NCBI GenBank assembly: GCA_021771755.1
Contig: JAETOL010000001.1
Location: forward strand, 62,001 to 126,000
Reading direction: 5' to 3'
Length of the DNA stretch: 64,000 nt
From: Lachnospiraceae bacterium
Lineage (GTDB): Bacteria; Bacillota; Clostridia; Lachnospirales; Lachnospiraceae
The translations under genes were made by a program, and so were the position numbers. Under the pieces are notes generated by a model, which was not told where the DNA came from, did not search any database, and was given only the letters and a program-made list of their open reading frames with translations. Positions 10,317 through 33,265 of this stretch are shown here, one piece after another (within the stretch, counting starts at the first letter, position 1; every line of letters starts with the position of its first letter).

Positions 10317-10388
10317 CTTTTTCTCCATTCTATTGCAGTTTCTCCGATAATGGAACACCCCATAGATAGCGAATCACCGATATCGGCA

Positions 10389-12965: not shown

Positions 12966-13814
12966 TTACATGATCTCCTTCAGATAACGGGAAAGGGCAT
13001 CCTGCCAGGAAGGCAGACGCTCAAATCCATGCTGAGTCAGCTTATTCTTTTCCATACGGCTGTTGGAAGGACGTTTTGCCTTTGCCGGATACTGATCTGA
13101 GCTTACCGGAGTTACTTTTACGTCCATCCCGGCCTGACGGAAGATTTCCTTTGCAAAATCACACCAGGAAATATAACCGCCTTCATTTGTCGCATGGTAT
13201 TTCCCATACTCTTCTTTTTCCAGCATATCCACAAGAAGTTTTGCAAGATCATAAGTATAGGTAGGCGTTCCGATCTGGTCATCTACCACAGTCAGGGTAT
13301 CATGAGTCTTTCCAAGATTCAGCATAGTCTTGATAAAGTTTTTGCCATTCACGCCAAATACCCAGGCAATACGGACAATATAATACTTATCCGTATATTT
13401 TTCTACTGCCAGTTCTCCTTCATACTTTGTCTGACCGTAAACATTCAGAGGCTTTACCACCGGATCGTCCGGCTCCCAGGGACGGGTGCCTTCTCCGTCA
13501 AACACATAATCGGTGCTGAGGTAGATCATGGGAATATCCAGTTCCCCGCACATTTTTGCAATGTTTTCTGTTCCCAGAGTATTGACCTTACGGCACATTT
13601 CCACCTGATCCTCTGCTGCATCCACTGCAGTCCAGGCTGCACAGTGCACCATTTTGTCCGGGCGGACTTCTTCCATGACTCTGCGCACTGCCGCTTCGTC
13701 TGTGATGTCCATTTCATCCACATCTACGCCAACACCTTCATAGCCCCGTTTCGCCAGCTCATTCATCACATCATGACCAAGCTGTCCCTTTACTCCTGTG
13801 ACTAATACCTTCAT
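12966..13814 (-). CDS. rfbD: dTDP-4-dehydrorhamnose reductase
   Basis: Last step of dTDP-L-rhamnose synthesis: NAD(P)H-dependent reduction of dTDP-4-keto-L-rhamnose. The 282-residue short-chain dehydrogenase has the nucleotide-binding GVKGQLG at residues 7-13, STDYVFDG near residue 103, the catalytic YGQTK (YxxxK) near residue 130 and VVDDQIGTPTYT near residue 180, all typical of RfbD/RmlD. rfbA and rfbC are in the same operon and rfbB lies upstream at 32 kb, so the whole rhamnose pathway is present. ATG at 13814 follows AAGGAGG. Confidence 0.96.
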   Translation of the reverse strand: MKVLVTGVKGQLGHDVMNELAKRGYEGVGVDVDEMDITDEAAVRRVMEEVRPDKMVHCAAWTAVDAAEDQVEMCRKVNTLGTENIAKMCGELDIPMIYLSTDYVFDGEGTRPWEPDDPVVKPLNVYGQTKYEGELAVEKYTDKYYIVRIAWVFGVNGKNFIKTMLNLGKTHDTLTVVDDQIGTPTYTYDLAKLLVDMLEKEEYGKYHATNEGGYISWCDFAKEIFRQAGMDVKVTPVSSDQYPAKAKRPSNSRMEKNKLTQHGFERLPSWQDALSRYLKEIM

Positions 13815-16273: not shown

Positions 16274-16288
16274 ATCCAACCTCGTTTC

Positions 16289-18706: not shown

Positions 18707-18719
18707 GTTTTACCTCATT

Positions 18720-20903
18720 CTACTTTTTCTTAATGCTTCTATATAATTTCCAGACCTTTGTATTTTCCATCTGGGTAATCTTTTCATTCAGTCTGCGGAT
18801 TTCCGCATCCTTTTCGGCAGATACTCTGGAAAAGTTCTTCCAGAAATCTTCTCGGGCATCCTGTTCTTTCATAGTCCGGATCCGGATGCACAGCTTTGTT
18901 TTCCCGGAAACATCTCCGGTTATAAACTGAGGATCGCCTCCGCCAAAGTAATATGCGCCTTCTCCCATAGGAAATCCATTGGCCGTAAAATCTGCCGGTG
19001 TTCCGTCCTCATAGGAAAGCTCTTTCAGGATCAGTCCTCCCGCCGCTTCTCCCGGATCCAGGCGCAGTCTGTGTACGCCTTCGGGAATTCTGATCTCCAG
19101 GTCCAGTCCTTCCCTGCTCATCGGATAAACGGCTGAATCCTCCTCACGGAAGCCTTCTCCCCGGTCAAAGAATACCTGAAGTCTTCTTTCTGCTCCTGCG
19201 ATCCGCATCTGTTCATAATACGGCAGGATCTCTACTTTACCCGGGGAAACCTCTTCATAAAGCTCCAGAAGAGGAACATGCTCTCCTTTCATGTAATTCT
19301 GGAAATTTCGTTCCATTTCCCCGTAGATCTCCAGATCCTTTGCGGTGATCCCGGCTTTTCCATAAAAATCCCGGTTCTTCAGAACATGGCGCTTGCCGTC
19401 GCTTTCCAGATAATAATGGATCATCCGGTACTGGATAAAATCCGCCGGGATCGGAAAACGGAAGGTCCATTCATAATCAATAACTACCTGTCTGTCCCTC
19501 TGGATCAGAAGGTTTGCCGGAACAAGATCAATATTGGACATGCCGGAAGCATCATATTCTCCTTCAAGAGGCGCGTCTCCAAATACCTGGATAAATTCCG
19601 GTGTCTTTCTGAATTTCTCCTTACAGTGAAGACTGCGGATCTTTTTCAGATAAAAGAAAAACAGCTCTTCCAGTTCCTGGAATTTTCCCTGCTCCAGAAG
19701 CATATCCAGTTTTTCCTCCAGAGTTACGCCTTCCAGATATTCCAGCTTTGCCGCCCCCTGCTCAAACCGGCAGTTATTCAGCTCAATGCCTTCTTTTTCG
19801 TAAATCGCATTCAGTTCTCTCTGGATCCGTTCCAGATTCTTTACATGCTCCTCTGCCTTTGGCACTACCGGAAGCTTCCGCACATATCTCTCATACCGTC
19901 CCGGCTCGCAGATATCAGTCCGAAGAGCAAACTTCTGATCTCTTTCATTGGAAAATTTGGAATAGACCACCTCCGGTCTGATTTCCTCTCTTCCGATCAG
20001 AAGAAGGAACGAATTGGAAAATTCCGGAAACATATTGTTATCCAGAAGGGAGTCGTATACGGAGGATTCCTGAAACAGCTGAAGTCTCAGTCTGTCAAAA
20101 TTGGTCTCCATCCGGTTCAGTTCTCCCTTCAGAGGAAGACGGCTGTCGGAATATATGGTCGTGGGAAGCTTGTAATCCGGGAATGGATAATACCAGCTTG
20201 CCTTGAGGTTTCCCGCTTTTTCCAGAATCGTCGTCAGTTCCTTTTTTGTAAAGGTCTTAACGCCTTTTGTGGAAGGATATCCTTCCAGTCCCTCAAATAG
20301 GGTGCCAAAATGATCCTCGGTACAGCCTGCCCAGTATTTCAGTCCGAAACGGTTTTCAATGGCAAGAATGATCTTTCCTTCCGGCTTCAGATGGCGGGCA
20401 ATGGTTCTGAGGAAATCCACATAAGGAGTTTCGCTCCGGATATAATTTTCCCCATACTCAAAAACGCCGATCAGAGTAATGTAGTCATACTTCTCCGTCA
20501 GCGCAGGCTCGATCTCCTGGAAATTACCCATAAGAATCGTCAGGTTCTCACAGTCTCTGTGTCTCCAGGCATTGATCTCACTTCTTTTTTTTGAAAGCTC
20601 GATACAGGTGACCTTTTTTGCTTTTTTGCAAAGGGCGCCTGTAATCGCTCCGCAGCCGGAACCAATCTCCAGCACACTTTCCTGTCCGGTAAAAGAAAGC
20701 CAGCTTAAAATATTTTCTCTTACATGAGAAAAATGGTAAAGGATAGGCCAGCTTTTCCGCTCAGCGATCACCCGGTTCCATTCCTCCTCCGGGTAGTTTC
20801 TGGCAATCTCCAGCATTTCATCCTCTACACTTCCGTCACTGTATAAATCTTGCCCTGGATAACAGGTATCATCCAGGGTCACCTGTCCGATCTTTTCTTT
20901 CAT
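18720..20903 (-). CDS. Methyltransferase-kinase fusion, WbdD-like chain-terminator candidate
   Basis: 727 residues. The N-terminal class I methyltransferase has motif I VLEIGSGCGAITG at 77-89 and CIELSKKR at 100-107. A second region at about 320-500 looks like a small-molecule kinase: a hinge EYLEGVTLEEKL (388-399), a catalytic-loop analogue with D459 and N464 (NIDLVPANLLI) and a second Asp at D476 (VVIDYEW). A beta-rich part follows, then a short coiled coil at the end (EIRRLNEKITQMENTKVW). WbdD of E. coli O9a has the same order (methyltransferase, kinase, coiled coil) and caps chains exported by Wzm/Wzt. Here the start overlaps the wzt stop by four bases (ATGA). The kinase call is from motifs only. 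Confidence 0.8.
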   Translation of the reverse strand: MKEKIGQVTLDDTCYPGQDLYSDGSVEDEMLEIARNYPEEEWNRVIAERKSWPILYHFSHVRENILSWLSFTGQESVLEIGSGCGAITGALCKKAKKVTCIELSKKRSEINAWRHRDCENLTILMGNFQEIEPALTEKYDYITLIGVFEYGENYIRSETPYVDFLRTIARHLKPEGKIILAIENRFGLKYWAGCTEDHFGTLFEGLEGYPSTKGVKTFTKKELTTILEKAGNLKASWYYPFPDYKLPTTIYSDSRLPLKGELNRMETNFDRLRLQLFQESSVYDSLLDNNMFPEFSNSFLLLIGREEIRPEVVYSKFSNERDQKFALRTDICEPGRYERYVRKLPVVPKAEEHVKNLERIQRELNAIYEKEGIELNNCRFEQGAAKLEYLEGVTLEEKLDMLLEQGKFQELEELFFFYLKKIRSLHCKEKFRKTPEFIQVFGDAPLEGEYDASGMSNIDLVPANLLIQRDRQVVIDYEWTFRFPIPADFIQYRMIHYYLESDGKRHVLKNRDFYGKAGITAKDLEIYGEMERNFQNYMKGEHVPLLELYEEVSPGKVEILPYYEQMRIAGAERRLQVFFDRGEGFREEDSAVYPMSREGLDLEIRIPEGVHRLRLDPGEAAGGLILKELSYEDGTPADFTANGFPMGEGAYYFGGGDPQFITGDVSGKTKLCIRIRTMKEQDAREDFWKNFSRVSAEKDAEIRRLNEKITQMENTKVWKLYRSIKKK

Positions 20904-22156
20904 ACTTTTTCTCCGTAGTGAATCTCTACTTTTGAGTTCATATCATAAAAACCAACGGTGTTTTTATTGGAAACCACCGTAATGTTACATGCATCATACA
21001 GTCTGTGGAAAACAGTAAACTCCCCGTCCTTATAACCGGTACATCCAAAAGAAAGAAGATATTCTCCTCCCTGAAGAAACATATCCTGCCGGAAGGTCAC
21101 TGTGCAGGTATCGCCTGCTTCGGAATGTTCCACAGCCATTTTTTCAAAAAGAGTGTTGGTTCCTGTAATTTCCGTTCCTTTAATATCCTTAAAGGTATAA
21201 GCCATGATCGGCTCCTGGATATTCTCATGAAAAACAACCTTCATTTTGATCTGGAAGGAGCTTCCTTTTTCAATGGTATTTGTACACAGCCCTTTCTCAT
21301 CCAGCACTGCAAAATCCACAATCTCTGCCAGTTTGCTGCCATATTCCAGCATATTGGGGTTCACCTGGAACTGTTCGCTCCAGTTTTCCTTCTGTGTTTC
21401 TTTATTTTCGTCTGCTTTTGCAGGATCCTGCCCCACCAGAAGCTGTTTGTACATATCCACCATCTGCTTGGGAGAACCTTCCTCCATTTTTACCCCTTTG
21501 TTAAGGAGGATGACCCTGTCGCAATAACGGGAAATGCTGCTGAGATCATGACTGACAAAAAGAATGGTACGTCCCATTTTTTTGAACTCCTCAAATTTAC
21601 GGTAGCATTTTGCCTGGAAAAATACGTCGCCTACAGACAGAGCCTCATCTACGATCAGAATCTCCGGATCAATGTTAATGGCTACCGCAAAAGCCAGACG
21701 GACAAACATACCGCTGGAATAGGATTTCACCGGCTGATAAACAAAGTCTCCGATATCCGCAAAATCCAGAATATCCTGAAGCCTTGCATCCACCTCTTCT
21801 CTGGAAAATCCCATCATTGTTCCGTTGAGATATACGTTTTCAATCCCGGTATATTCCATGTTAAAGCCGGCTCCCAGTTCCAAAAGGGCTGAGATCCTGC
21901 CGTTTACAGTCACTTCTCCGGCTGTGGGGTTCAGAACTCCGGTAATGATCTTTAAGATCGTGGATTTTCCGGAACCATTGGTTCCGATGATCCCTACCGT
22001 CTCTCCCCTCTCCACCTGAAAGTTTACATCCCTGAGGGCATAATGTTCCCTTACAGGCACCTTAAGCCCCAGGGTTTCCCGGAGCCTGTCTGAAGGTTTG
22101 TTATATAATTTATACATCTTATCCAGATGTTTTACCTGAATTGCAATTTCACTCAT
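20900..22156 (-). CDS. wzt: Polysaccharide ABC exporter ATPase with Wzt C-terminal domain
   Basis: The nucleotide-binding subunit of an O-antigen/teichoic-acid type exporter. The Walker A is GTNGSGKST near residue 50, the signature is SYSSGM and Walker B is ILIVDEALSVGD. After residue 270 comes an extra beta-sandwich of about 140 residues (EIVDFAVLDEKG to the end), matching the Wzt C-terminal domain that recognises the modified chain end before export. I use ATG at 22156, with GGAG seven bases upstream; the ATG at 22168 directly follows the permease stop without a ribosome site. The domain pairs logically with the WbdD-like capping enzyme downstream. Confidence 0.92.
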   Translation of the reverse strand: MSEIAIQVKHLDKMYKLYNKPSDRLRETLGLKVPVREHYALRDVNFQVERGETVGIIGTNGSGKSTILKIITGVLNPTAGEVTVNGRISALLELGAGFNMEYTGIENVYLNGTMMGFSREEVDARLQDILDFADIGDFVYQPVKSYSSGMFVRLAFAVAINIDPEILIVDEALSVGDVFFQAKCYRKFEEFKKMGRTILFVSHDLSSISRYCDRVILLNKGVKMEEGSPKQMVDMYKQLLVGQDPAKADENKETQKENWSEQFQVNPNMLEYGSKLAEIVDFAVLDEKGLCTNTIEKGSSFQIKMKVVFHENIQEPIMAYTFKDIKGTEITGTNTLFEKMAVEHSEAGDTCTVTFRQDMFLQGGEYLLSFGCTGYKDGEFTVFHRLYDACNITVVSNKNTVGFYDMNSKVEIHYGEKV

Positions 22157-22168
22157 CTTACTCTCCAT

Positions 22169-22975
22169 TTATATGACATCTGCAAAGTGTACCTGAAGTT
22201 TCTTAAACAGCCGCGTTCCCAGAACAAACAGCAAAATGGTCACTGCCCAGAAATACAGGGTCAGCCATGGATGCTGCCAGATTCCGATATGGTCGATCAG
22301 GGAATCACGGTATCCCTGCACCACATAAAACACAGGATTCAGTTTCAGGATTTTTGTCAGGATCCCCTCAAGACCAAGATCACCGAAATTCCACATGATC
22401 GGGGTCACCCACACGCCTACCTGCAGGCCAATGTTGATGATCTGGCTGAGATCCCGGAAGAATACCACCACCGCGCTGGAAAAATAAGTTACTGCAAGGA
22501 TCAGCATAAAAATACAGAAGCTGTAATAGATCAGCTGCAGCGCATACCAGGTGGGAGGATACCCCATACAGGTGTAGATCACAAGCACGATCAGCACAAA
22601 AAAGCAGTGTACAAAAGCGGCTGAGATCACTTTTACCACCGGAAGGATCCGGATATTAAAAACCACCTTTTTTACCAGATAATTGTACTCCAGAAGTGCG
22701 TTGGTGCCGCCTACCAGTCCGTCCTGAAAGAAAAACCAGGGTACCAGACCTGCCACCAGCCACAGCACAAAGGGAACGCCTCTGTCTGCTCCGCCTCTCA
22801 GGGCAAGTCCGAATACAAACCAGTAGACACAGATGGTCACAATGGGCTGGATAAATGCCCAGATGGTTCCGAAATAGGAACCTGCATATTTTGTTTTAAA
22901 GTCGTTTTTTGCCAGAGAGAATACTAACCTTCTGTTCCGGTAAAGCTCCCCTGGCAGCCAGGTTTCTTTTTTCAA
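22169..22975 (-). CDS. wzm: Polysaccharide ABC exporter permease
   Basis: An ABC-2 type permease with six membrane helices and the family N-terminus ELYRNRRLVFSLAKNDFKTKYAGSYFG. It moves the lipid-linked polysaccharide across the membrane together with the Wzt ATPase. I choose a TTG start at 22975: AGGAG lies about 9 bases upstream and TTG overlaps the rfbC stop as TTGA, giving 268 residues, a normal family length. An ATG at 23020 would add 15 residues and overlap rfbC by 49 bases. Topology and neighbours make the family assignment firm. Confidence 0.9.
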   Translation of the reverse strand: MKKETWLPGELYRNRRLVFSLAKNDFKTKYAGSYFGTIWAFIQPIVTICVYWFVFGLALRGGADRGVPFVLWLVAGLVPWFFFQDGLVGGTNALLEYNYLVKKVVFNIRILPVVKVISAAFVHCFFVLIVLVIYTCMGYPPTWYALQLIYYSFCIFMLILAVTYFSSAVVVFFRDLSQIINIGLQVGVWVTPIMWNFGDLGLEGILTKILKLNPVFYVVQGYRDSLIDHIGIWQHPWLTLYFWAVTILLFVLGTRLFKKLQVHFADVI

Positions 22976-23541
22976 TCCTTTTTGCTCCTGTTTGCGGAAT
23001 ATTCCTGAAAGCTTCCCCACTTCTGATCTTTTTCAGACATGATCAGCTCCATTCCCTCAGGGATCGGCCACTCAACTGCAATGTCCGGATCATTGTATGC
23101 CAGACCGCCCTCATCATTCGGATGATAGAAGTCTGTACATTTATAGGCAAATTCTGCGGAATCAGAAAGCACCAGAAAACCATGTGCAAAGTTCTTCGGA
23201 ATAAAGAACTGTTTTTTATTCTCTGCAGAAAGCAGAACGCCATACCACTGTCCATAAGTCGGAGAGCCCTCTCTCAGATCCACAGCAACATCAAACACCT
23301 CGCCGCTGACTACACGGACCAGCTTATCCTGCGGATAATTAATCTGGAAGTGAAGCCCTCTTAAAACTCCTTTTCTGGAGCTGGACTGATTGTCCTGGAC
23401 AAACTCCTGATCGATTCCTGCCGCTTTATAGTCATTATAATTATAAGTCTCCATAAAGTATCCGCGCTCGTCTCCGAATACTGCAGGTGTAATCACCTTC
23501 AGTCCTTCAATATGACAGGTTTCTACTGTGATTTTTCCCAT
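22972..23541 (-). CDS. rfbC: dTDP-4-dehydrorhamnose 3,5-epimerase
   Basis: It epimerises C3 and C5 of dTDP-4-keto-6-deoxyglucose. The 189-residue cupin shows the RmlC hallmarks: FGDERGYFMETYN near residue 22, DNQSSSRKGVLRGLHFQ (with the catalytic His of GLHFQ) near residue 50, VDLREGSPTYGQW, FAHGFLVLSD and YNDPDIAVEWP. It begins one base after the rfbA stop and ends overlapping the permease start, so the genes are coupled. Confidence 0.96.
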   Translation of the reverse strand: MGKITVETCHIEGLKVITPAVFGDERGYFMETYNYNDYKAAGIDQEFVQDNQSSSRKGVLRGLHFQINYPQDKLVRVVSGEVFDVAVDLREGSPTYGQWYGVLLSAENKKQFFIPKNFAHGFLVLSDSAEFAYKCTDFYHPNDEGGLAYNDPDIAVEWPIPEGMELIMSEKDQKWGSFQEYSANRSKKD

Positions 23542-24433: not shown

Positions 24434-25699
24434 TTATCGTCTGGATCTGTACATTTTTTTCTCTTTAAAGTGAAGTGCTGTCATTAAGATCACCAGGATC
24501 ACCGCCATGACCGCCATAATCCCCAGCAAAAATTTTGAAGTACTTGATAAGTTACTCTCATCCTCGGAAAGAACGTCTGCCGCTGATACGTTTCCTGACT
24601 GGGCAGCATCCTCTGCGGACGCAGGCTGTGTCACCTGCGGAGTAGGGGAAAACTTAGGCGTCATTACATAACCGACAAATTGGTTGCTGTAATAAAACTG
24701 ATTCATGATCTGGCCATTTTTTTCTTTTGTTTTTACTGACAGATCATCCAGCGTTACTCCCTTTGGCACTGTCATATTTTTTCCATTTAATGTTAATGTA
24801 TCAAAATTATTGAATGCATAATCAAAAAGAGCAATCGTATCTGTGCAGTTAGCGCCAAGATCCGGTGCGCGAAGCGTTACCGCAATATAAGTCCGTCCAT
24901 TTCTTTCTGCCGCCGCTACCAGTGTATGTCCGGCGTCATTTGTATTTCCGGTCTTACCTCCGATACAGCCCTCATAATAAAGATTGGATTCCTTTGCCAT
25001 CAATGGCATATGCGTATGCATGCCTCTTGGCTCACTGAGATTGGTTGCCGGAATCGTATAGCTTACTTTGCTGAGCACCTGACGGAATCTGTGATTCCTA
25101 AGACCTGCCCGCATAATCTTTGCCAGGTCATGGGCTGTCGTATAGTGTTCTGCATCCGGAAGTCCGCTGGCATTCGCAAAATGCGTATTTCTGCATCCGA
25201 TCTCCTTTGCCTTCTGATTCATCATTTCGATGAATTGTGCTTCTGTACCGCCGACATACTCTGCCATCTGGGCACAGACTTCATTGGCCGACTGAATGAT
25301 AGCTGCAAACCAGCAGTCTTTCATGGTCATTGTTTCTCCCAGTTTCATTCCAATATTGGAACTGTCCCAGGTCACATCCCTGACTCCGGTTTCTGTAAAT
25401 GTAACGACATCTCTTGGAGAACTGTTTTCAATGGCCGTAAGCACCGTCATGATCTTTGTCGTGCTGGCAGGATATCTGTATTCGTCCATTCCCTTATCAT
25501 AGAGCACGGCGCCTGTGTCTGCATCAATAAGCACCGCTGTCTCAGAAACCGTATCCGGTCCTTTTGGCCATCCCTGGATATTATCTGTTGCTACCGCTGC
25601 CGGTGTTCCAAAGTTTACAGTTACTGCCTGTACTGTCGATGCCGGCAGGATCAGGGATATCAGTCCCAAGGCTACCGCACCAGCAAAATTTTTTCTCAT
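24434..25699 (-). CDS. D-alanyl-D-alanine carboxypeptidase (intact active site)
   Basis: 421 residues from ATG 25699, five to six bases after GGAGGAG; the upstream TTG at 25717 lacks a site. It has a signal peptide (ends STVQA), the SXXK motif as STTK in PASTTKIMT, SXN as SAN, KTG as GGKTGNTNDAG, the C-terminal PBP5 domain and a final membrane helix (about residues 388-410). It should remove terminal D-Ala from peptidoglycan stems outside the cell. The plus-strand paralogue at 5750 shares the N-terminal layout (GWPxGxD...) but has lost KTG. A carboxypeptidase inside a polysaccharide operon may tune the attachment or cross-linking of the wall that receives the polymer. Confidence 0.93.
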   Translation of the reverse strand: MRKNFAGAVALGLISLILPASTVQAVTVNFGTPAAVATDNIQGWPKGPDTVSETAVLIDADTGAVLYDKGMDEYRYPASTTKIMTVLTAIENSSPRDVVTFTETGVRDVTWDSSNIGMKLGETMTMKDCWFAAIIQSANEVCAQMAEYVGGTEAQFIEMMNQKAKEIGCRNTHFANASGLPDAEHYTTAHDLAKIMRAGLRNHRFRQVLSKVSYTIPATNLSEPRGMHTHMPLMAKESNLYYEGCIGGKTGNTNDAGHTLVAAAERNGRTYIAVTLRAPDLGANCTDTIALFDYAFNNFDTLTLNGKNMTVPKGVTLDDLSVKTKEKNGQIMNQFYYSNQFVGYVMTPKFSPTPQVTQPASAEDAAQSGNVSAADVLSEDESNLSSTSKFLLGIMAVMAVILVILMTALHFKEKKMYRSRR

Positions 25700-25713
25700 T
25701 CTTCTCTCCTCCG

Positions 25714-26841
25714 TCAAAACTCAAACGCAAGTATCTTGTCTGTAATATATTCCACATCAGACATAGACAGATTATAAAACATAGGCAGGCGAAGAAGACG
25801 TTCGCTCTCTTTTGTAGTATAAACATCTTCTCCAAAAAACCTTCCAAATTTCTCTCCTGCCGGTGAACTGTGCAGCGGTACATAATGAAAAGCTGTACAG
25901 ATTCCGTTTTCTTTCAGGTAGGAGATCAGCCGGCTTCTTGTTTCAAGATCTTTTACCTTGATGTAATACATATGTGCATTATGCCTGCATCCATCCGGCA
26001 CAACAGGTCTCTGGATTTTTTCCTGTTCCTCCAGAACCTTCAGTCCTTCATTATAATAATCATAAATCTGATGACGCTTACCATTGATTTTCTCTGCCTC
26101 TTCCAGCTGGGCATACAGATAGGCCGCATTCATTTCACTTGGAAGATAAGAAGAACCATAGTCGATCCATCGGTATTTATCTACCTGTCCTCGGAAAAAT
26201 TTACTCCTGTCCGTTCCCTTTTCTCTGAGAATCTCTGCCTTTTCCTGATATTCATTTTTCTGGAATACAAGAGCGCCGCCCTCTCCCATAGTATAATTCT
26301 TTGTTTCATGGAAACTGTAGCATCCAAAATCTCCAATTGTTCCCAGCGCTTTTCCGTGGTAATAAGCCTCCACACCTTGCGCAGCATCTTCAACTACTTT
26401 CAGATTATATTTTTTTGCCAGTTCCATGATCTTGTCCATTTCACAGGATACCCCTGCATAGTGGACCGGTACCACAGCCTTTGTTTTCTCTGTAATAGCC
26501 CCTTCGATCAGTTTTTCATCTATATTCATAGTATCCGGCCGGATATCTACAAACACGATCCTTGCCCCCCGGAGTACAAAAGCATCAGCCGTAGATACAA
26601 AGGTATAGGAAGGCATGATCACCTCATCTCCCGGCTGAATATCACAAAGGAAAGCCGCCATCTCCAGTGCATGTGTACAGGATGTTGTCAGAAACACCTG
26701 AGAAGCCTGAAATCTGTCCTTCATCCACTGAGAGCAGAGTTTTGTATATTTACCGTCTCCACAGAGCATTCCCTGGTCTACGGCATCTTTGATATAGTTC
26801 AGTTCTTTCCCTACAAGAGCAGGTCTGTTAAAATCTATCAT
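25714..26841 (-). CDS. wecE: dTDP-4-keto-6-deoxyhexose 4-aminotransferase (WecE/RffA-like, DegT family)
   Basis: A PLP-dependent sugar aminotransferase. Against dTDP-4-keto-6-deoxyglucose the WecE family makes dTDP-4-amino-4,6-dideoxygalactose (dTDP-Fuc4N). Seen in the 375 residues: DFNRPALVGKELNYI and MLCGDGKYTK near the N-terminus, TTSCTHALEMAA, PSYTFVSTADAFVLRGA, VVEDAAQGVEAYY and the PLP lysine in SFHETKNYTMGEGGAL (about residue 182). Its substrate is the RfbA/RfbB product. It overlaps the upstream GT2 gene by four bases (ATGA), linking the amino sugar to that transferase. The related VioA/ArnB specificities cannot be excluded by eye. Confidence 0.9.
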   Translation of the reverse strand: MIDFNRPALVGKELNYIKDAVDQGMLCGDGKYTKLCSQWMKDRFQASQVFLTTSCTHALEMAAFLCDIQPGDEVIMPSYTFVSTADAFVLRGARIVFVDIRPDTMNIDEKLIEGAITEKTKAVVPVHYAGVSCEMDKIMELAKKYNLKVVEDAAQGVEAYYHGKALGTIGDFGCYSFHETKNYTMGEGGALVFQKNEYQEKAEILREKGTDRSKFFRGQVDKYRWIDYGSSYLPSEMNAAYLYAQLEEAEKINGKRHQIYDYYNEGLKVLEEQEKIQRPVVPDGCRHNAHMYYIKVKDLETRSRLISYLKENGICTAFHYVPLHSSPAGEKFGRFFGEDVYTTKESERLLRLPMFYNLSMSDVEYITDKILAFEF

Positions 26842-27806
26842 TCTTTATTTCCCTGTTTTTCTTCTTCCTTATTATCAGCGGTTTCAGAAACATTCTCCTT
26901 GTCCCGTATCACATACTGGGGTGTTTTGTTCACATTCAGCATCAGCTTGCCCAGATATTCTCCGACAATTCCCAGCATCAGAAAACAGATGCCAAACAAT
27001 ACCAGCATCGCACACATCAGGGAAGACCAGCCAATGGTCACAGACGGATTCAAAAGTTTACGGATAAAAACAACCACCGCGCCAATGAAACCCGCTGCGG
27101 AAAACAACGTTCCAAAAAATGTCGCAAGTCGAAGAGGAATCACTGTAAAGTTCAGACAGGACATAAAGAGCTTCAGTCCTCTTCTGAAATTATAATTGGA
27201 GGTTCCCACTTCTCGTTCAAAATGCTCGATCTCTATGTTTGCGATATTATGTGTGGTACGGAAAAACAGTACCTGGAGAAAGGTATTGTAACCGTCATAT
27301 TTTACAACTTCATCTCTTACATATTTCCTGCAGCACCAGAAACTGCTCATCTGAATATCCTTTGGACGATCCAGAAGATGCCACAAAAGAAAACGGCTCA
27401 CTGCGCCTGTCAGGTTTTTAAACCAGGAAAATTTCCTTTGCTTAAACACACCGAACACAATGTCATAGCCTTCTTCCATTTTATCCAGAAACTGCGGAAT
27501 CTGGGAAGGATGATTCTGCATATCGTCATCCATTCCCAGGATCAGATCTCCCTCAGCATAGTTCATTCCTGCCATAATGGCATTATGCTGCCCAAAATTT
27601 TTCGCAAGATTAATTCCTTTTACATTCGGATATTTCCCGGCCAGTGCATGAATAGACTTCCAGGTATCATCTCTGGAATAGTCGTTTACAAGCACAAACT
27701 CACACTCATAATCTTTCAGTTTCTCAAATTCTTCTATTGCAAGCTCTACCACCTTTCCGATGGTGTGCTCTGAATTGTAGCACGGTATGACAATCGATAC
27801 CAGCAT
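26838..27806 (-). CDS. Polyprenyl-phosphate glycosyltransferase, ArnC/CsbB/DPM1-like
   Basis: A GT2 enzyme that should load one sugar onto undecaprenyl phosphate at the inner face of the membrane. From ATG 27806 (GAGGGAG just upstream) it has 322 residues: SIVIPCYNSEHTIGKVV at the start, VNDYSRDDTW, LGMDDDMQNHPSQIP (the ArnC/DPM1 metal box), RKFSWFKNLTGAVSRFLLW and two C-terminal membrane helices (about 225-250 and 258-285). It sits between the aminotransferase and a pair of small flippase-like genes, the same set of functions as ArnB-ArnC-ArnE/F. A longer start would overlap the upstream gene. Confidence 0.88.
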   Translation of the reverse strand: MLVSIVIPCYNSEHTIGKVVELAIEEFEKLKDYECEFVLVNDYSRDDTWKSIHALAGKYPNVKGINLAKNFGQHNAIMAGMNYAEGDLILGMDDDMQNHPSQIPQFLDKMEEGYDIVFGVFKQRKFSWFKNLTGAVSRFLLWHLLDRPKDIQMSSFWCCRKYVRDEVVKYDGYNTFLQVLFFRTTHNIANIEIEHFEREVGTSNYNFRRGLKLFMSCLNFTVIPLRLATFFGTLFSAAGFIGAVVVFIRKLLNPSVTIGWSSLMCAMLVLFGICFLMLGIVGEYLGKLMLNVNKTPQYVIRDKENVSETADNKEEEKQGNKE

Positions 27807-27822
27807 CTTTTCTCCCTCGTTT

Positions 27823-28167
27823 CTATAGGTTAAATATAAAGATTCCTGCAAGGATCAGGGCAAATCCCATAAGTTTCCTTTTGCTGAATCTTTCTTTCAA
27901 AAAGAAATATCCCATTACCGAAACAAAAATATATCCTGTAGATTCCAGAATCGGCGACATAGAAAGCGGCAGATTCCGCAGTGCCAGCATAGTAAGGATC
28001 ACAGAGCAGAAAAAAAGGCCGTAGGCTCCGATCACCATGGGATTCAGATACTCCTTCAGCGGACTGTCATATATTTTGTTTGCTGCTTTTTTCAGAATGA
28101 TCTGGGAAACGGATGAGATAAATACAGATAAAAGCATAATACATACCGATATCTGAAAACTGCTCAA
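27823..28167 (-). CDS. Half-size EamA/SMR transporter, flippase subunit candidate
   Basis: 114 residues with four membrane helices. It ends with the EamA pattern LPLSMSPILESTGYIFVSVMGYFFLKERFS followed by KLMGFALILAGIFIF. Starts with TTG overlapping the previous stop (TTGA), with GGTGAG upstream. Single four-helix members work as pairs; ArnE and ArnF form such a pair that flips undecaprenyl-phosphate aminoarabinose. Position between the ATP-grasp genes and the ArnC-like transferase supports the same role for the sugar made here. Not proven from sequence alone. Confidence 0.8.
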   Translation of the reverse strand: MSSFQISVCIMLLSVFISSVSQIILKKAANKIYDSPLKEYLNPMVIGAYGLFFCSVILTMLALRNLPLSMSPILESTGYIFVSVMGYFFLKERFSKRKLMGFALILAGIFIFNL

Positions 28168-28547
28168 TGCTTCTCACCGCCCTTCTCAAAATTTTCTGAT
28201 GTTACCAGACAGATTCCGGCAAAGATAACCACTGCTCCGGCAATCATATTCCAGGTAATCTTTTCACCAAAGATCAGCGCTCCCCAGATGATCCCCCATA
28301 TCAGCGTCACAGGACGGTTCGCATATGCCACTGTCAAAGGCATGCGTTTCAGGATTTGCTGCCAGATCACTGCATAACCGAACATGATCACAAATACCAG
28401 TCCAAACCAGAAAATAAACTGCAGTGAAAAAATATGATCTGCATATCCGGAGGCCAGCTTGGAACAGACGCCGCTTAAAGAACTGAACAAAAGGCTGATA
28501 TGAAGCAGCAGATATGTACTTTTTTTTGAGTCATGGTCATTTCTCAT
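28164..28547 (-). CDS. Half-size EamA/SMR transporter, second subunit
   Basis: 127 residues, four membrane helices after a polar N-terminus (MRNDHDSKKST). The motif KRMPLTVAYANRPVTLIWGIIWGALIFGEKITWNMIAGAVVIFAGI matches the EamA/SMR family. It probably forms a heterodimer with the overlapping next gene. In Gram-negatives the paired ArnE/ArnF genes have the same size and topology. It follows the ATP-grasp gene by 15 bases. Confidence 0.8.
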   Translation of the reverse strand: MRNDHDSKKSTYLLLHISLLFSSLSGVCSKLASGYADHIFSLQFIFWFGLVFVIMFGYAVIWQQILKRMPLTVAYANRPVTLIWGIIWGALIFGEKITWNMIAGAVVIFAGICLVTSENFEKGGEKH

Positions 28548-28562
28548 GTTATTCTCTCACAA

Positions 28563-29756
28563 TCATACTGTAAATTCAATGTTAATTTTCGACAAAATAT
28601 CGCCCAGACGCGTTTCGCAGGCATCCAGATCTTTTCCGGTCAGGATCACCTGACCAATTCGGTCTCTTCCATTTTCGTAACGGTTCACCTGATCTCCCGG
28701 CTGAATATTAAAAGAGAGATCCACAATATCCTCTGCAGGCACATTTGTATTATGGATTTCTTTTACAATACCGCTTCTGTCTGAGGTCAGTATCTTGGAA
28801 AGGCTGGACTGACGCGGGATATGACCTTCAAACAGCTTTTCCGGTTCCATATCCATGGCAAGCCGCACAATCGCCTCATAATAATTGATGCCGTAATACA
28901 AGCCAACAGTTTCCGGCAAACAGGTCGCACCTGCCCTTCCGGTGATTTCAATCACATAAATCTTTCCATCTTTTTCAATCAGGTCACAGTTCACTGCACA
29001 ATTATCAAGCCCTACCGCCTGAATGGCAAGCATCACCTGATGCTTCACCTTCTCTCCCAGCATCTCCTGTTTTCTGTAAGGAACAGAATGTCCTACCGGT
29101 GTCGGCACATAACTTTGGAAAGCATCAATGTTATTAGGAAGGCAGTAAAGAAGCTTCCCGTTGGAGATCATAGCCTCACAGCCAAGGGTTTCTCCTTCAA
29201 TAAATTCTTCTGCCAGACAGTAATCTTTTCCGGTAGCTTTCATCGTGTCTTCATACCGCTCAAATGCTTCTTCCTTTGTATCGCACCGAAAAATCCCTCG
29301 GCTTCCCATCAGGTCTACTGCCTTAAGGACTACAGGAAATTCCAGACATTCCAGAGCCTCAGCAAGCTCTTTCCTGTTTCGGATACAGATATGACGGGCG
29401 CAGTTTACTCCGCCTGCCATAAAAGCTTCCTTCATCTTAAACTTATTGCTGCTGATTTCTGCCGCTTCCGCGCTCAGTCCTTTCAGTCCGAGCTGCTCAC
29501 ATGCATAACCCAGAGCTCTTACTCCGGTATCCAGACAGCAGGTAGCGATACCATCTACATGGAACTTTTCTGCCGCCTCATATACAGCCGCAGGATCTGA
29601 TATATCCGTGTACGTATATTCGTCTGCCGCCTGAAATCCCGGCCAGTCTCCCGGAATGCTGGCAGCTACTGTAGAAATACCCAGTTTTTTTGCTTCCTGA
29701 TAAAGAGGAAGCTGAGAATAACTGGCGCCAAGAATCATTAATTTTTTCATAGTCAA
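28563..29756 (-). CDS. ATP-grasp ligase (carboxylate-amine ligase type)
   Basis: 397 residues in three ATP-grasp subdomains. A Rossmann-like N-terminus (KLMILGASYSQLPLYQEAKKLG) comes first, then the ATP-binding lid (FPVVLKAVDLMGSRGIF near residue 140, AEEFIEGETLG near 190) and the metal site (AVNCDLIEKDGKIYVIEITGRAGATCLPE near 265). Such enzymes activate a carboxylate as acyl-phosphate and join it to an amine. It starts at TTG 29756 overlapping the fusion gene stop (TTGA), with GGAGGAG in place. The substrate is unknown; with an amino-sugar transaminase in the operon, an amino acid joined to a 4-amino sugar is the leading idea. Confidence 0.85.
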   Translation of the reverse strand: MTMKKLMILGASYSQLPLYQEAKKLGISTVAASIPGDWPGFQAADEYTYTDISDPAAVYEAAEKFHVDGIATCCLDTGVRALGYACEQLGLKGLSAEAAEISSNKFKMKEAFMAGGVNCARHICIRNRKELAEALECLEFPVVLKAVDLMGSRGIFRCDTKEEAFERYEDTMKATGKDYCLAEEFIEGETLGCEAMISNGKLLYCLPNNIDAFQSYVPTPVGHSVPYRKQEMLGEKVKHQVMLAIQAVGLDNCAVNCDLIEKDGKIYVIEITGRAGATCLPETVGLYYGINYYEAIVRLAMDMEPEKLFEGHIPRQSSLSKILTSDRSGIVKEIHNTNVPAEDIVDLSFNIQPGDQVNRYENGRDRIGQVILTGKDLDACETRLGDILSKINIEFTV

Positions 29757-31921
29757 AGATCATTCTCCTCCAGGAAATCAAAAAATAAAGGGGTTCCTCC
29801 TGTATGGAGAAACAGAATATTTTTATCATGAATCTGGTGTTCTTCCAGATATCTTACCATACCATAAAAAGCCTTTCCTGTATAGGTCATATCAAGAGGT
29901 ATTCCCTCTTCGCCGTATATTTTCCTGATGATATCCGCTGTTTTAGAAGAATAGCGTCCATATCCGTCTCCCAGATATTCATCTGTAAAATAAATATGAT
30001 CTTCCAGAGCTTCCGGGAAACTATGTCCAAATTTATCCGCATACACCTTAAGATCAGAGGCAATGACCTCTTTTCCTCTTTTTTCATTTCTGGAAACAGA
30101 GATACCGATGATCTTTCTGTTATCTCCTGCTTTCAGGCTTCCTGCAAGCAGTCCGGCCTGAGTCGCATTGGTGCTGGATGCCAGAAATATATAATCAAAA
30201 TGAAGCCCCTTTTTTTCTTCCTGACGGCAGATTTCCTCGTATGCCTCCGCATAAGCCTCCATGGGAACCCATTCCCGTCCCTGGCCTTTTGTATTTCCAT
30301 AAATATAATAAGGGCGATATCCTTTTTCTGTCAGCTCATCCATCGCCAGCTGCACAGCATTCGCAATTCCGGTTTTTCCACAGGGAATCTCTCTTACTCC
30401 CATGGCCCGGATCACCCGGCTGTTCTGAGTCTCTTTGTGCTCTTTTATATCTTCTGTATTATGGACCATATAGCAAGGCATTCCCAGTTCATGACAGAGA
30501 GTTGCCAATATCCGGCAAAGATTGGAATGATAATTTCCATAAATGATCATACTGTCACAAAGCTCTCTTTTCATATCTTCCAGAAATTTCTGAGCAAAGC
30601 GAACTTTATTTCCACCAAAAGAAAATGGCAGGAGATCGTCTCTCTTCATATAAAAATGATTGCAGGGGATATGTGCTGATGATATCTGCCAGCCCGGAAT
30701 CTCCGGTGCCTTCCAGCTGATTTCTCCTCCGGAAAATCTCAGTTTCTGTACCGGTGTTTCCGGAAGTTCTTTCAGAGGATTTTCCCATGGTCCATGATGG
30801 AGAAGCTCTTCCATTTCTTCGTGGGAATCTGCCTGCAGGATAAAGAATCCCGGTCGGCTTCCACTGTCCACAATGTTTGCTTTTTTTACTGTGCCTTCTA
30901 TCACCACTTTGCGCAGCTTATCCGGATGTTTTTCCTGCAGTTCAGCAAGCAGCTTCTGATCGTTCTCATTCATAAGAAAACGAATAGCCGCCACATGTCT
31001 GTCTGGCGCTTTTAATACCGGTGGTTTTCCAGATGCCGTATCTACTACCATTCCTACAAAATCCTGCCCGGTAGAAAGAGGGACCAGATCAGAACCAATA
31101 CAGTCTCCTCCCATACGGGAGCCAATTTCAATAATACGGATTTCTCCTGTTTTGCTGATCCGCAGTTCGCTGTGACCGGCTCCATATGCGATTCCCAGTG
31201 CATCCAGTGCTTTAAAGACGGTTTCTTTTACTCTGCATTCCACAGCTTCTGTCAAAGGCGCTGGTTGTATATGCGCCACTTCTATATAATGAGGGCTTCC
31301 TGTGGTGAATTTTTTGGTAATCGCCAGACAAGTATGATGCCCTTCATAGCTTATGGTCTCTACACTATACTCTGCGCCTTCTATATATTCTTCTACAATT
31401 GCCTTTTTTTCAAAAGACTGACTTACAGCACTAAAAACAGCGCCCGGCAGATCTTCCTCTTTATATACCTTGGTAATCGCTCTGCTTCCGGAACGATCTG
31501 TAGGCTTCACAATCACAGGGTATGACTGGGGATGAGCAGACTCGCCCTCTCCCACCGTTTCAAAAAATGGTACCGGAATGCCGGCTTTCTGAAAAGCAAG
31601 ACGCATAGAAGCTTTATTCGTAGAATTCTGAATGCATTCGCTGCTGTTTCCAGGAAGTCCTAATTTTTCTGACAGATACTGCACTGTAATATTTGCAAGA
31701 TCTGATCCGATCGTTGCCACTGCATCCGGCTGGATCTTTCTGCAGACATCCAGGATCTGATCTTTTTCTGTGATACTGATCTCATAAAAGAAATCTGCAT
31801 CTTCTGCGCCTGTGGCTCCTTCTCTCCAGGCAAACACATGCGTTTCATATCCCATTTCTTTCGCTTTTTGTATTAAAGGTCTCTGAAAATCATTTGCCCC
31901 GATGATCACAATCTTCTTCAT
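29753..31921 (-). CDS. ATP-grasp ligase fused to a PLP enzyme of the ACC deaminase/D-cysteine desulfhydrase family
   Basis: About 722 residues in two enzymes. The N-terminal ATP-grasp (to about residue 380) has KIVIIGANDFQRPLIQKA, VIVKPTDRSGSRAI, EEYIEGAEYSVE, HSELRISKTGEIRIIEIGSRMGGDCI. The C-terminal fold-type-II PLP domain (about 405-722) has KRDDLLPFSFGGNKVRFA, where the Lys of GGNK (near residue 440) binds PLP, plus YGNYHSNLCRILATLC, SSTNATQAGLLAGS and FLHTGGTPLFFDF, all hallmarks of the ACC deaminase/DcyD family. Family members act on D-cysteine, ACC or related amino acids. The fusion implies that one enzyme makes or removes an amino acid the other ligates. I use ATG 31921, with GAGGGTG upstream. 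It is the first gene of the large operon. Confidence 0.85.
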   Translation of the reverse strand: MKKIVIIGANDFQRPLIQKAKEMGYETHVFAWREGATGAEDADFFYEISITEKDQILDVCRKIQPDAVATIGSDLANITVQYLSEKLGLPGNSSECIQNSTNKASMRLAFQKAGIPVPFFETVGEGESAHPQSYPVIVKPTDRSGSRAITKVYKEEDLPGAVFSAVSQSFEKKAIVEEYIEGAEYSVETISYEGHHTCLAITKKFTTGSPHYIEVAHIQPAPLTEAVECRVKETVFKALDALGIAYGAGHSELRISKTGEIRIIEIGSRMGGDCIGSDLVPLSTGQDFVGMVVDTASGKPPVLKAPDRHVAAIRFLMNENDQKLLAELQEKHPDKLRKVVIEGTVKKANIVDSGSRPGFFILQADSHEEMEELLHHGPWENPLKELPETPVQKLRFSGGEISWKAPEIPGWQISSAHIPCNHFYMKRDDLLPFSFGGNKVRFAQKFLEDMKRELCDSMIIYGNYHSNLCRILATLCHELGMPCYMVHNTEDIKEHKETQNSRVIRAMGVREIPCGKTGIANAVQLAMDELTEKGYRPYYIYGNTKGQGREWVPMEAYAEAYEEICRQEEKKGLHFDYIFLASSTNATQAGLLAGSLKAGDNRKIIGISVSRNEKRGKEVIASDLKVYADKFGHSFPEALEDHIYFTDEYLGDGYGRYSSKTADIIRKIYGEEGIPLDMTYTGKAFYGMVRYLEEHQIHDKNILFLHTGGTPLFFDFLEENDL

Positions 31922-32083
31922 TCTTAACACCCTCATTTCTGTTCTGTCTTATATTTTATCATTTTATTGTCGGGCTTTCCATAAGTTTTTACAGTCTGTC
32001 TGACCTGATCCGGCATGCATCTGAGCACATCCTCGCGAAACATTTCTTTATCAGGAAAATTTGTACAAAATGTACTCTTTCCC
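31922..32083 (-). other. Leader of the large operon with a short open frame, promoter not found
   Basis: Between the rfbB terminator and the fusion gene there is no convincing sigma-A promoter. A minus-strand frame with no stop runs to 31933 (from ATG 32043, 36 codons, ending MIKYKTEQK) and touches an in-frame ATG of the next gene as ATGA. The frame can extend upstream through the terminator to 32160. It could be a leader peptide, a gene remnant or chance. No family is recognised. Confidence 0.3.
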
Positions 32084-32182: not shown

Positions 32183-33265
32183 TCATTTTGTTTTATACAT
32201 ATCCTCGTAATATTTCTGATAGTCCCCGCTTGTCACGTTTTTCATCCAATCCTCATTTTCGAAAAACCATTTGATCGTCAGACGGATTCCATCTTCAAAA
32301 CAAGTTTCCGGATACCAGCCAACCTCTTCTTTGATCTTATCAGGAGCAATGGCATATCGGCGGTCATGTCCCTTACGATCTTCTACATAAGTGATCAGAT
32401 TCTCACTGACAAGTTCTCTTCTGGGATCTCCTTCCGGAAGCATTTCCTGAAGAGTATCCAGAATAATATGGATAATCTGGATGTTCTGTTTTTCATTATG
32501 TCCGCCAATATTGTAAGTTTCAAAAAGGCGTCCCTTTTCCTGAACCATATCAATTCCCTTGGCATGATCCATAACATACAGCCAGTCACGAACATTCTTT
32601 CCATCTCCGTATACCGGAAGCTTCTTACCCTGAAGTGCATTATTGATAATCAGCGGAATGAGCTTCTCCGGGAACTGATATGGTCCATAGTTATTGCTGC
32701 AGTTTGTAATATTTGCCGGGAATTTGTAAGTATCCATATAAGATTTTACCAGCATATCAGAAGAGGCCTTACTTGCAGAATACGGACTATGCGGATCATA
32801 AGGGGTAGTCTCATAGAAAAAGCCACCCTCATCCTCAAGAGATCCATATACCTCATCCGTAGAAACATGAAGGAATTTTTTATCTGGTTTAAAGGTTCCG
32901 TCAGGAAGTTCCCATGCAGCTTTTGCTGCATTGAGCATAACCAGTGTTCCCAGCACGTTTGTTTTTACAAACACTTCCGGATTGCGAATACTTCTGTCCA
33001 CATGACTCTCTGCTGCAAAATGAACAACACGATCAATGTCATTTTCATCAAAAATCTTCATGATAGCTTCGCTGTCACAGATATCCGCCTTTACAAAGGT
33101 ATAGTTGTCTCTGTTTTCAATATCCTTCAGGTTTTCCAGATTTCCTGCATAGGTCAGCTTATCCACATTGATGATGCGGATCTCATTGTCATATTTCTGA
33201 AACATGTAGTGGATATAGTTGGATCCTATAAATCCTGCTCCGCCTGTTACCAGATATGTTCTCAT
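32183..33265 (-). CDS. rfbB: dTDP-glucose 4,6-dehydratase
   Basis: Makes dTDP-4-keto-6-deoxyglucose, the branch point between rhamnose (RfbC, RfbD) and the 4-amino sugar (WecE-like). The 360-residue extended SDR shows VTGGAGFIGSNYIHY at residues 6-20, FAAESHVDRSIRNP near 80, HVSTDEVYGSL near 130, the catalytic YSASKASSD near 160, and NNYGPYQFPEKLIP. Standard for RmlB. It has its own terminator and is separated from rfbA, rfbC and rfbD by seven genes or more. AGGAGG lies 9-10 bases before the ATG, right beside an inverted repeat. Confidence 0.97.
   Translation of the reverse strand: MRTYLVTGGAGFIGSNYIHYMFQKYDNEIRIINVDKLTYAGNLENLKDIENRDNYTFVKADICDSEAIMKIFDENDIDRVVHFAAESHVDRSIRNPEVFVKTNVLGTLVMLNAAKAAWELPDGTFKPDKKFLHVSTDEVYGSLEDEGGFFYETTPYDPHSPYSASKASSDMLVKSYMDTYKFPANITNCSNNYGPYQFPEKLIPLIINNALQGKKLPVYGDGKNVRDWLYVMDHAKGIDMVQEKGRLFETYNIGGHNEKQNIQIIHIILDTLQEMLPEGDPRRELVSENLITYVEDRKGHDRRYAIAPDKIKEEVGWYPETCFEDGIRLTIKWFFENEDWMKNVTSGDYQKYYEDMYKTK

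What the first reader, a model, noticed from the sequence alone, without database searches (positions are those of the whole stretch)
25714..31921. Arn-like lipid-linked amino-sugar pathway with ATP-grasp ligases
Six adjacent, mostly overlapping genes encode a 4-aminotransferase (ArnB-like role), a polyprenyl-phosphate transferase (ArnC-like), two half-size EamA transporters (ArnE/F-like), and two ATP-grasp ligases, one fused to a PLP enzyme. Together with YfhO at the operon end, they would make a 4-amino-4,6-dideoxyhexose, load it on lipid, flip it and add it to the exported polymer. The ligases could attach an amino acid to the 4-amino group, giving a charged surface decoration. I know of no described pathway with this set.
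Basis: inference. Interest (0 to 1): 0.75.

Follow-up and report, generated by a model that had tools for sequence, protein, structure and literature searches.

The report
Swappable aminoacyl-sugar wall-decoration gene cassette
A gut bacterium (Blautia) carries a compact gene set that probably makes an amino sugar, hangs an amino acid on it, flips it across the membrane and fixes it to a rhamnose-rich wall polymer, and close relatives carry different versions of this set at the same place.

Summary
The six genes are real, intact and where stated (minus strand, 31921 to 25714), inside an rmlABCD/Wzm-Wzt/YfhO polysaccharide cluster of a Blautia-like genome. The aminotransferase passes the curated WecE cut-off (product dTDP-Fuc4N). 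The other parts resemble ArnC, ArnE/F and L-amino-acid ligases but fail the Arn cut-offs. Comparative genomics ties the ATP-grasp ligases to this sugar: in a 299-genome family sample (298 genera) all 25 LIG2-positive genomes have WecE (96 of 299 do; P=4e-14), though in 10 of the 25 the genes are on other contigs or over 20 kb apart. At 47 Blautia WecE loci the ligase and the ArnC-like transferase come and go together (37/37 against 1/10). The PLP domain is fused to LIG1, fused to LIG2, free-standing or absent. Between close relatives ligase, ArnC and EamA are replaced (ArnC about 30% identical) while YbbR, RmlC and WecE stay 84-99% identical, suggesting that transferase and flippase are matched to the ligase's product. 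[quoted passage not shown] The acyl group, its linkage and the PLP reaction are not shown. A dlt-replacement idea was tested and did not hold up.

The parts
29753..31921 (-). LIG1-PLP: ATP-grasp ligase (about aa 1-400 of the 727-aa ORF that opens at 31936) fused to a D-cysteine-desulfhydrase-like PLP domain (about aa 420-727)
   Evidence: PF13535 79 bits, PF00291 97 bits, both over cut-off; solved relatives 3vot (L-amino acid ligase), 1rqx, 4d8t
28563..29750 (-). LIG2: ATP-grasp ligase with LAL_C2 domain
   Evidence: PF18603 47.8 over 29.4; closest solved chain 4dim, E 8e-106, no tested function known to me
28164..28547 (-). EamA half transporter 1 (ArnE-like)
   Evidence: PF00892 33.5 over 28.2; ArnE model 32.7 under 92
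27823..28167 (-). EamA half transporter 2 (ArnF-like)
   Evidence: PF00892 41.6 over 28.2; ArnF model 29.5 under 99
26838..27806 (-). ArnC/PgfS-like GT2 with two C-terminal hydrophobic segments (ORF opens at 27851)
   Evidence: PF00535; solved ArnC E 5e-45; hydropathy
25714..26841 (-). WecE-like dTDP-4-keto-6-deoxyglucose 4-aminotransferase
   Evidence: NF008687 632 over 375, TIGR02379 620 over 435; 4piw E 5e-159
32183..33265 (-). RmlB, makes the shared dTDP-4-keto-6-deoxyglucose
   Evidence: TIGR01181 482 over 365
24434..25717 (-). D,D-carboxypeptidase (Peptidase_S11), neighbour; role in the pathway not assumed
   Evidence: PF00768
22972..24421 (-). RmlA (23543-24421) and RmlC (22972-23541)
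   Evidence: named from sequence by me; conserved in relatives; no family search run on these two
20900..23020 (-). Wzm (22169-23020) and Wzt (20900-22168) ABC exporter
   Evidence: PF01061; PF00005 with PF14524 Wzt_C
13829..20903 (-). methyltransferase-domain protein and two double-GT2 proteins of the polymer
   Evidence: Pfam
12966..13814 (-). RmlD
   Evidence: PF04321 340 bits
10389..12959 (-). YfhO, candidate GT-C that takes the lipid-linked sugar
   Evidence: PF09586 211 over 28.5

Best explanation
RmlA/RmlB and WecE make dTDP-Fuc4N (shown only by family assignment). LIG2, an ATP-grasp ligase, joins the carboxyl group of an amino acid (or related acid) to the 4-amino group; LIG1, found only where LIG2 is present, adds or pre-assembles a second residue, and its fused PLP domain makes or converts the amino acid used (inferred). 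The ArnC-like transferase moves the acylated sugar to undecaprenyl phosphate, the EamA pair flips it, and YfhO puts it on the Wzm/Wzt-exported rhamnose-containing polymer (inferred from named relatives and gene order). LIG2 would take the place of WecD's acetylation and of ArnA's formylation. Ligase, ArnC and EamA form a module that is exchanged at a fixed chromosomal place while WecE stays.
For: WecE cut-off passed; WecD over cut-off in 0 of 64 genus genomes. LIG2 implies WecE: 25/25 in 299 family genomes, P=4e-14, 10 of 25 unlinked; 33/33 in 64 genus genomes. ArnC-like gene within 3 kb of LIG2 in 32/33 genus and 19/20 other loci. Ligase and ArnC co-vary at WecE loci, 37/37 against 1/10. LIG1 always with LIG2: 23 of 23 distinct loci. 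PLP fused to either ligase, alone or absent. ArnC and EamA change with the ligase while WecE does not. Catalytic residues kept. No hydrophobic segment in either ligase or WecE, so they should be cytoplasmic.
Against: No biochemistry. Five uncut WecE loci of the genus have neither ligase nor ArnC, so WecE's sugar has another use there. EamA genes are within 3 kb of LIG2 in only 8 of 20 loci outside the genus and WecE in 7 of 20. ATP-grasp enzymes use many acids and amines. AlphaFold models were too poor to test the pockets. WecE product stereochemistry rests on the family model.
Confidence: 0.7

Rival explanations
1. The ligases make a free dipeptide or other small molecule (bacilysin- or dapdiamide-like) and sit in the cluster without acting on its sugar.
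For: Closest characterised relatives by name are L-amino-acid ligases that make free dipeptides (3vot, BacD; their products recalled).
Against: LIG2 implies WecE in 25/25 genomes even where unlinked, and ligase and ArnC vanish together; a free-standing metabolite would need neither.
Confidence: 0.12
2. The ATP-grasp enzymes acylate Fuc4N or its lipid with a non-amino acid (hydroxy acid, malonate-like) or carbamoylate it; the PLP domain is for a separate step.
For: In four LIG2 loci outside the genus (L090, L094, L096, L098) a 428-431-aa gene is near LIG2; in the two sequences looked at I see an adenylate-forming-like TTSGS motif by eye, but L090's had no Pfam hit. In Gram-negative antigens 4-amino sugars carry hydroxybutyryl and other acyl groups (recalled).
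Against: LAL_C2 in LIG2, L-amino-acid-ligase relatives, and repeated association with an amino-acid PLP enzyme.
Confidence: 0.14
3. A Van-like peptidoglycan change: ligase plus amino-acid enzyme plus D,D-carboxypeptidase remodel the D-Ala-D-Ala end.
For: A D,D-carboxypeptidase gene follows WecE, and a PLP enzyme is fused to a ligase.
Against: Both ligases are far below the Ddl cut-off (49 and 42 against 245.65 bits) and a proper Ddl (288 bits) lies elsewhere in the genome. The carboxypeptidase is not next to WecE in type II loci and in the two type III loci that hold WecE.
Confidence: 0.02

Closest known systems
Multi-component (three-component) transmembrane glycosylation systems, e.g. CsbB/GtcA/YfhO (PMC8035078, passages read)
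   Same: Membrane-linked GT-A that loads undecaprenyl phosphate, small flippase, GT-C (YfhO or PMT_2 type) decorating a secondary wall polymer.
   Different: Known flippases in that review are GtrA or Wzx type (the passages and a term count of 0 for EamA); here an EamA pair. Cytoplasmic ligases are added and the sugar is Fuc4N.
Arn pathway (lipid A Ara4N)
   Same: 4-aminotransferase, ArnC-like GT2, two half EamA proteins; N-acylation before lipid transfer (formylation by ArnA, recalled).
   Different: dTDP-hexose not UDP-pentose; ligase instead of formyltransferase; no ArnD or ArnT seen in the cluster; all Arn model cut-offs failed.
Enterobacterial common antigen Fuc4NAc branch (WecE-WecD-WecF)
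   Same: WecE and its substrate.
   Different: No WecD over cut-off in 64 genus genomes; sugar goes to a monophosphate lipid carrier, not onto lipid II (inferred).
L-amino-acid ligases (BacD, BL00235, DdaF)
   Same: ATP-grasp fold and catalytic residues; LAL_C2 in LIG2.
   Different: Bound to a sugar pathway; LIG1 or LIG2 fused to a PLP domain.
Sugar-transfer associated ATP-grasp (PF14397)
   Same: Name implies a like role; weak hits by the third ligase of L084 and L042 (24.0 and 24.7 under 31.4).
   Different: Not hit by LIG1 or LIG2 at E<=0.001.

Membership tests
WecE | Score over curated equivalog cut-off NF008687 (375 bits) | tested here: met
   632 bits
Arn pathway | ArnB, ArnC, ArnE, ArnF model cut-offs (631, 529, 92, 99 bits) | tested here: not met
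   205, 167, 32.7 and 29.5 bits
Arn pathway | ArnA formyltransferase/dehydrogenase and ArnD deformylase | not tested
   None seen among the genes examined in the cluster; no genome-wide search run
ECA Fuc4NAc branch | WecD N-acetyltransferase (TIGR02382) | tested here: not met
   0 of 64 genus genomes over cut-off (21 weak hits); of 14 control genomes one is over, E. coli being among those that ring
Multi-component transmembrane glycosylation | GT-A glycosyltransferase with membrane segments | tested here: met
   PF00535, two C-terminal hydrophobic segments
Multi-component transmembrane glycosylation | GtrA- or Wzx-type flippase | tested here: not met
   EamA pair in its place; GtrA genes elsewhere in the genome not searched
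Multi-component transmembrane glycosylation | GT-C protein | tested here: met
   YfhO over cut-off; YfhO in 14 of 23 downstream stretches
L-amino-acid ligases | ATP-grasp domain with conserved catalytic residues, LAL C-terminal domain | tested here: met
   (LIG2 K145, D258, E270, R274 in 54/54; LIG1 K144, E257, E270, R274 in 22/22); LAL_C2 in LIG2 only
L-amino-acid ligases | Ligation of an amino acid | not testable with these tools
   needs enzymes
D-Ala-D-Ala ligase/Van | TIGR01205 cut-off 245.65 bits | tested here: not met
   49.3 and 42.2 bits; Ddl elsewhere 288.1
ACC deaminase / D-cysteine desulfhydrase | Curated cut-offs TIGR01275 (289.4), TIGR01274 (392) | tested here: not met
   137 and 121 bits; residue pattern Thr/Thr as in D-cysteine desulfhydrase

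The most novel reading that the evidence does not exclude
A serotype-like switch: Blautia and other Lachnospiraceae keep one rhamnose polymer and one amino sugar but exchange whole modules (ligases, amino-acid-making PLP enzyme, lipid transferase, flippase pair, to some extent the GT-C) that put different aminoacyl or dipeptidyl groups on that sugar; transferase and flippase read the acyl group, and the fused PLP domain makes a non-proteinogenic or D-amino acid on the spot for the ligase.
Probability: 0.35. Interest if true: 0.82.

Novelty: new variant of a known kind. Interest (0 to 1): 0.62.

Why it matters
If true, it adds an aminoacylated, lipid-linked 4-amino sugar and an EamA-type flippase to the side-chain glycosylation machinery of Gram-positive walls, in a common gut genus (recalled). 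It gives a testable function to a group of unassigned ATP-grasp enzymes (including the relative solved as PDB 4dim, filed as phosphoribosylglycinamide synthetase), and names a variable locus that may set how phages, antibodies and antimicrobial peptides see Blautia.

Tried and rejected
AlphaFold models of the fusion and of LIG2 from 7- and 6-row alignments were too poor (mean pLDDT 52.9 and 60.1) and were not used for fold searches.

Stand-in for teichoic-acid D-alanylation: in the genus DltD is in 2 of 43 genomes with a ligase cassette against 12 of 21 without (P=6e-6). Not accepted as evidence: on a YbbR tree the five DltD-positive rows that could be placed form one clade (100/98; nine further DltD-positive genomes were not placed), and in the 299-genome family sample DltD is rare (13/299 over cut-off) and not lower among LIG2-positive genomes (2/25).

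Van-type reading: rejected. Rfam at gathering thresholds: no hit in the window. Promoter/terminator scan: 33 and 15 sites against 24.6 and 11.3 in shuffles, not used. Phylum sample: LIG2 at E<=1e-60 in 1 of 398 genomes, the own one, so the group looks largely confined to this family at that depth; the tool scored only a few first-look candidates per genome.

Rows dropped: five loci fetched twice (L045, L048, L050, L052, L054 repeat L004, L002, L005, L003, L006) were left out of the trees. My gene picking missed a LIG1-PLP fusion in L086 (another genus) because it overlaps a long YfhO ORF; found on recheck, added to the PLP tree (place among the fused clade unresolved), but not to the ATP-grasp tree or to the residue counts. 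The YbbR trees hold 34 rows, those with a YbbR ORF of 300 aa or more.

Literature: ten searches (open-licence PMC only) listed no paper that I could recognise as describing ATP-grasp ligases in WecE/ArnC-like cassettes. I saw passages of PMC12413058, PMC13317340, PMC8035078 and PMC2824669; all others are listings only. Subscription papers were not covered, so this is no proof of absence. PMC2824669 shows that ATP-grasp ligases acting on surface polymers have been proposed before (in animals).
Full report
1. What is there. The window is part of a Blautia-like genome (G000 contig C148, 62001-126000). The nearest named record fetched is L005, a Blautia MAG, 91-100% identical over the genes from RmlB to the methyltransferase. 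From 31921 down to 25714 on the minus strand lie a protein with an ATP-grasp and a PLP (PALP) domain, an ATP-grasp ligase (LIG2), two EamA halves, a GT2 and a DegT-type aminotransferase. RmlB precedes; a D,D-carboxypeptidase, RmlA, RmlC, Wzm, Wzt, a methyltransferase, two double GT2 proteins, RmlD and YfhO follow.

2. The sugar. The aminotransferase scores 632 bits against a cut-off of 375 for the WecE equivalog and 620 against 435 for TIGR02379; the ArnB model gives 205 against 631. With RmlA/RmlB this predicts dTDP-Fuc4N. The usual next enzyme, WecD, is over its cut-off in 0 of 64 genus genomes (weak hits in 21).

3. The lipid route. The GT2 is closest to solved ArnC and scores alike with ArnC and PgfS models (167 and 168 bits), under both cut-offs (529 and 500); it has two C-terminal hydrophobic segments. 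The EamA halves match ArnE/ArnF models weakly. YfhO is over its Pfam cut-off. So the set works like Arn and like CsbB/GtcA/YfhO, and is a strict member of neither.

4. The ligases belong to the sugar. In a family sample of 299 genomes (298 genera), LIG2 at E<=1e-60 is in 25 and WecE at E<=1e-100 in 96; all 25 LIG2 genomes have WecE (hypergeometric P=4e-14). In 10 of the 25 the two are on different contigs or over 20 kb apart (drafts, so some may be linked in truth). In the genus (64 genomes) it is 33 of 33, with WecE in 51 of 64 (P=2e-5, relatedness not corrected). I fetched stretches around LIG2 for all 33 genus genomes and for 20 of the 23 LIG2-positive genomes outside it (G180, G227, G241 not fetched). 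Within 3 kb: ArnC-like gene 32/33 and 19/20; EamA 33/33 and 8/20; WecE 27/33 and 7/20; PLP 27/33 and 8/20; YfhO 0/33 and 6/20. The two ArnC exceptions are a contig end (L001) and L085. The own genome has 11 ArnC-like places at E<=0.001 in 3.7 Mb, so a chance neighbour within 3 kb is a matter of a few percent.

5. Seven layouts (type names are mine). Among the 33 LIG2-positive genus genomes: I, LIG1-PLP + LIG2 (19, two split by contig ends); II, LIG1 without PLP + LIG2 (3: L028, L029, L043); III, LIG2 alone (3: L037, L039, L057); IV, PLP fused to LIG2 (2: L030, L055; also L084, L085, L087, L089, L093 outside), with a third ligase next to it in L055 and L084 and on the same stretch in L093; V, PLP as its own gene (6: L031, L032, L033, L046, L047, L056; also L100, L101). 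VI, in 10 further genus genomes: a distant ATP-grasp with a 320-346-aa protein (no Pfam or NCBIfam hit for the one tried from this type), ArnC and EamA near WecE. VII: WecE without ligase. At 47 of the 51 WecE-positive genus genomes (stretches at the WecE of G011, G014, G078 and G085 not fetched) 37 have an ATP-grasp gene on the stretch, and all 37 have ArnC; 10 have none, and one of these has ArnC (P=7e-9). Of the 10, G064 and G065 carry LIG2 with ArnC at another place (L046, L047), and L066, L069, L071, L077 are cut short by contig ends; without those four it is 37/37 against 0/6 (P=2e-7).

6. Domain shuffling. In a tree of 34 PLP domains the fused ones group together (24 rows, 100/99), split into those fused to LIG1 (17 rows, 100/98) and to LIG2 (7 rows, 98/96); free PLPs lie outside. 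With the overlooked L086 fusion added, fused rows still group (25 rows, 100/99), LIG2-fused (7, 99/98) and Blautia LIG1-fused (17, 99/98) stay, and L086, from another genus, is unresolved between them. In the ATP-grasp tree (95 rows, long branches warned of) LIG1 (22 rows, 100/99) and LIG2 (54 rows, 100/99) are separate clades. LIG1 genes occur in 28 fetched loci, 23 after removing repeats, and every one also holds LIG2; 30 loci hold LIG2 without LIG1, two of them cut by contig ends. I infer that LIG2 acts first and LIG1 adds to it, and that the PLP domain serves whichever ligase needs its product.

7. The PLP domain. Lys444, Ser471, Asn472, Tyr685 and Thr712 are in 34 of 34, Thr686 in 31 of 34, His470 in 26 of 34. 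Two positions that are Glu and Leu in solved ACC deaminase are Thr and Thr here, as in D-cysteine desulfhydrase (that these positions set specificity is recalled). It is under the cut-off of every NCBIfam subfamily listed (best 25 of 52 shown), so the reaction is open.

8. Cassette exchange. G005 (type I) and G015 (type VI) are 91% identical in YbbR, 91% in RmlC and 90% in WecE, but 33% in ArnC, 36-39% in EamA and 23% in the best LIG2-profile gene; Wzm and Wzt are also lower there (69% and 65%). G087 (I) and G086 (VI) are 87% in YbbR, 98% in RmlC, 96% and 88% in Wzm and Wzt, 85% in WecE, and 30% in ArnC. Over 253 pairs of 23 genomes ArnC identity tracks EamA (Spearman 0.76, 0.66) more than YbbR (0.28), Wzt (0.34), YfhO (0.32), WecE (0.11), RmlC (0.11) or Wzm (0.11) (pairs are not independent). 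Types change at least 14 times on a 34-row YbbR tree with seven states. As the sugar enzyme stays while transferase and flippase change with the ligase, the simplest reading is that the ligase acts before lipid transfer and the later steps recognise its product; shared descent of a block would look alike, so this is inference. YfhO is downstream in 14 of 16 genomes of types I, II, III and V and in 0 of 7 of type VI (P=1e-4). In eight of the nine YfhO-less stretches (six type VI, two type I; G067 not printed) a 477-489-aa multi-TM protein holds the slot; of four run against Pfam two pass DUF2142, one PMT_2, one neither. The type I exceptions G012 and G080 show that the GT-C is not strictly tied to type.

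9. What is not shown. No activity, no polysaccharide structure, no identity of the acyl group. A charge role was tested through DltD and did not survive control for relatedness.

10. Verdict. Real, intact, conserved, and a new variant of multi-component transmembrane glycosylation with a dedicated, exchangeable acyl-ligase module; aminoacylated Fuc4N at about 0.7.

Noticed in passing
window 10389-12959; same slot in L103, L105, L106, L110, L112, L113, L119, L121: The YfhO slot before a D,D-carboxypeptidase gene is held in some relatives by a 477-489-aa DUF2142/PMT_2-like membrane protein, so the GT-C is exchangeable too.
   Followed up: partly
L034:2328-5211, L035:9573-11843: Distant PLP relatives sit next to short ATP-grasp proteins (PylC-like N-domain in L034's) and sugar-phosphate transferase genes in other polysaccharide clusters; L034 also has a FemAB-like gene. 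G013 (L035) has no WecE, so another sugar is likely.
   Followed up: partly
L036:3006-9544, L041:1302-9510: A further variant: ATP-grasp, ArnC-like, EamA pair, a 637-646-aa membrane-like protein and a 326-331-aa protein; the two tried from L036 had no Pfam hit.
   Followed up: no
L090, L094, L096, L098: A 428-431-aa gene lies beside or near LIG2 in other genera; the two sequences read show an adenylate-forming-like motif by eye, L090's has no Pfam hit.
   Followed up: no
window 33371-35908 and counterparts in relatives: An L,D-transpeptidase with choline-binding-like repeats precedes RmlB and the cassette; relatives often have one or two more proteins that match parts of it there.
   Followed up: no
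genus-wide: DltD is over cut-off in 14 of 64 genus genomes, and the five that could be placed form one clade that also holds three WecE loci without ligase and ArnC.
   Followed up: yes
PDB 4dim: Filed as phosphoribosylglycinamide synthetase, it is by far the closest solved relative of LIG2 (E 8e-106; next 4e-14), so the label may be wrong.
   Followed up: no
window 9804-10358: Small P-loop protein with a weak Zeta_toxin match (28.7 over 22.3 bits) after YfhO; likely a kinase-like NTPase.
   Followed up: no
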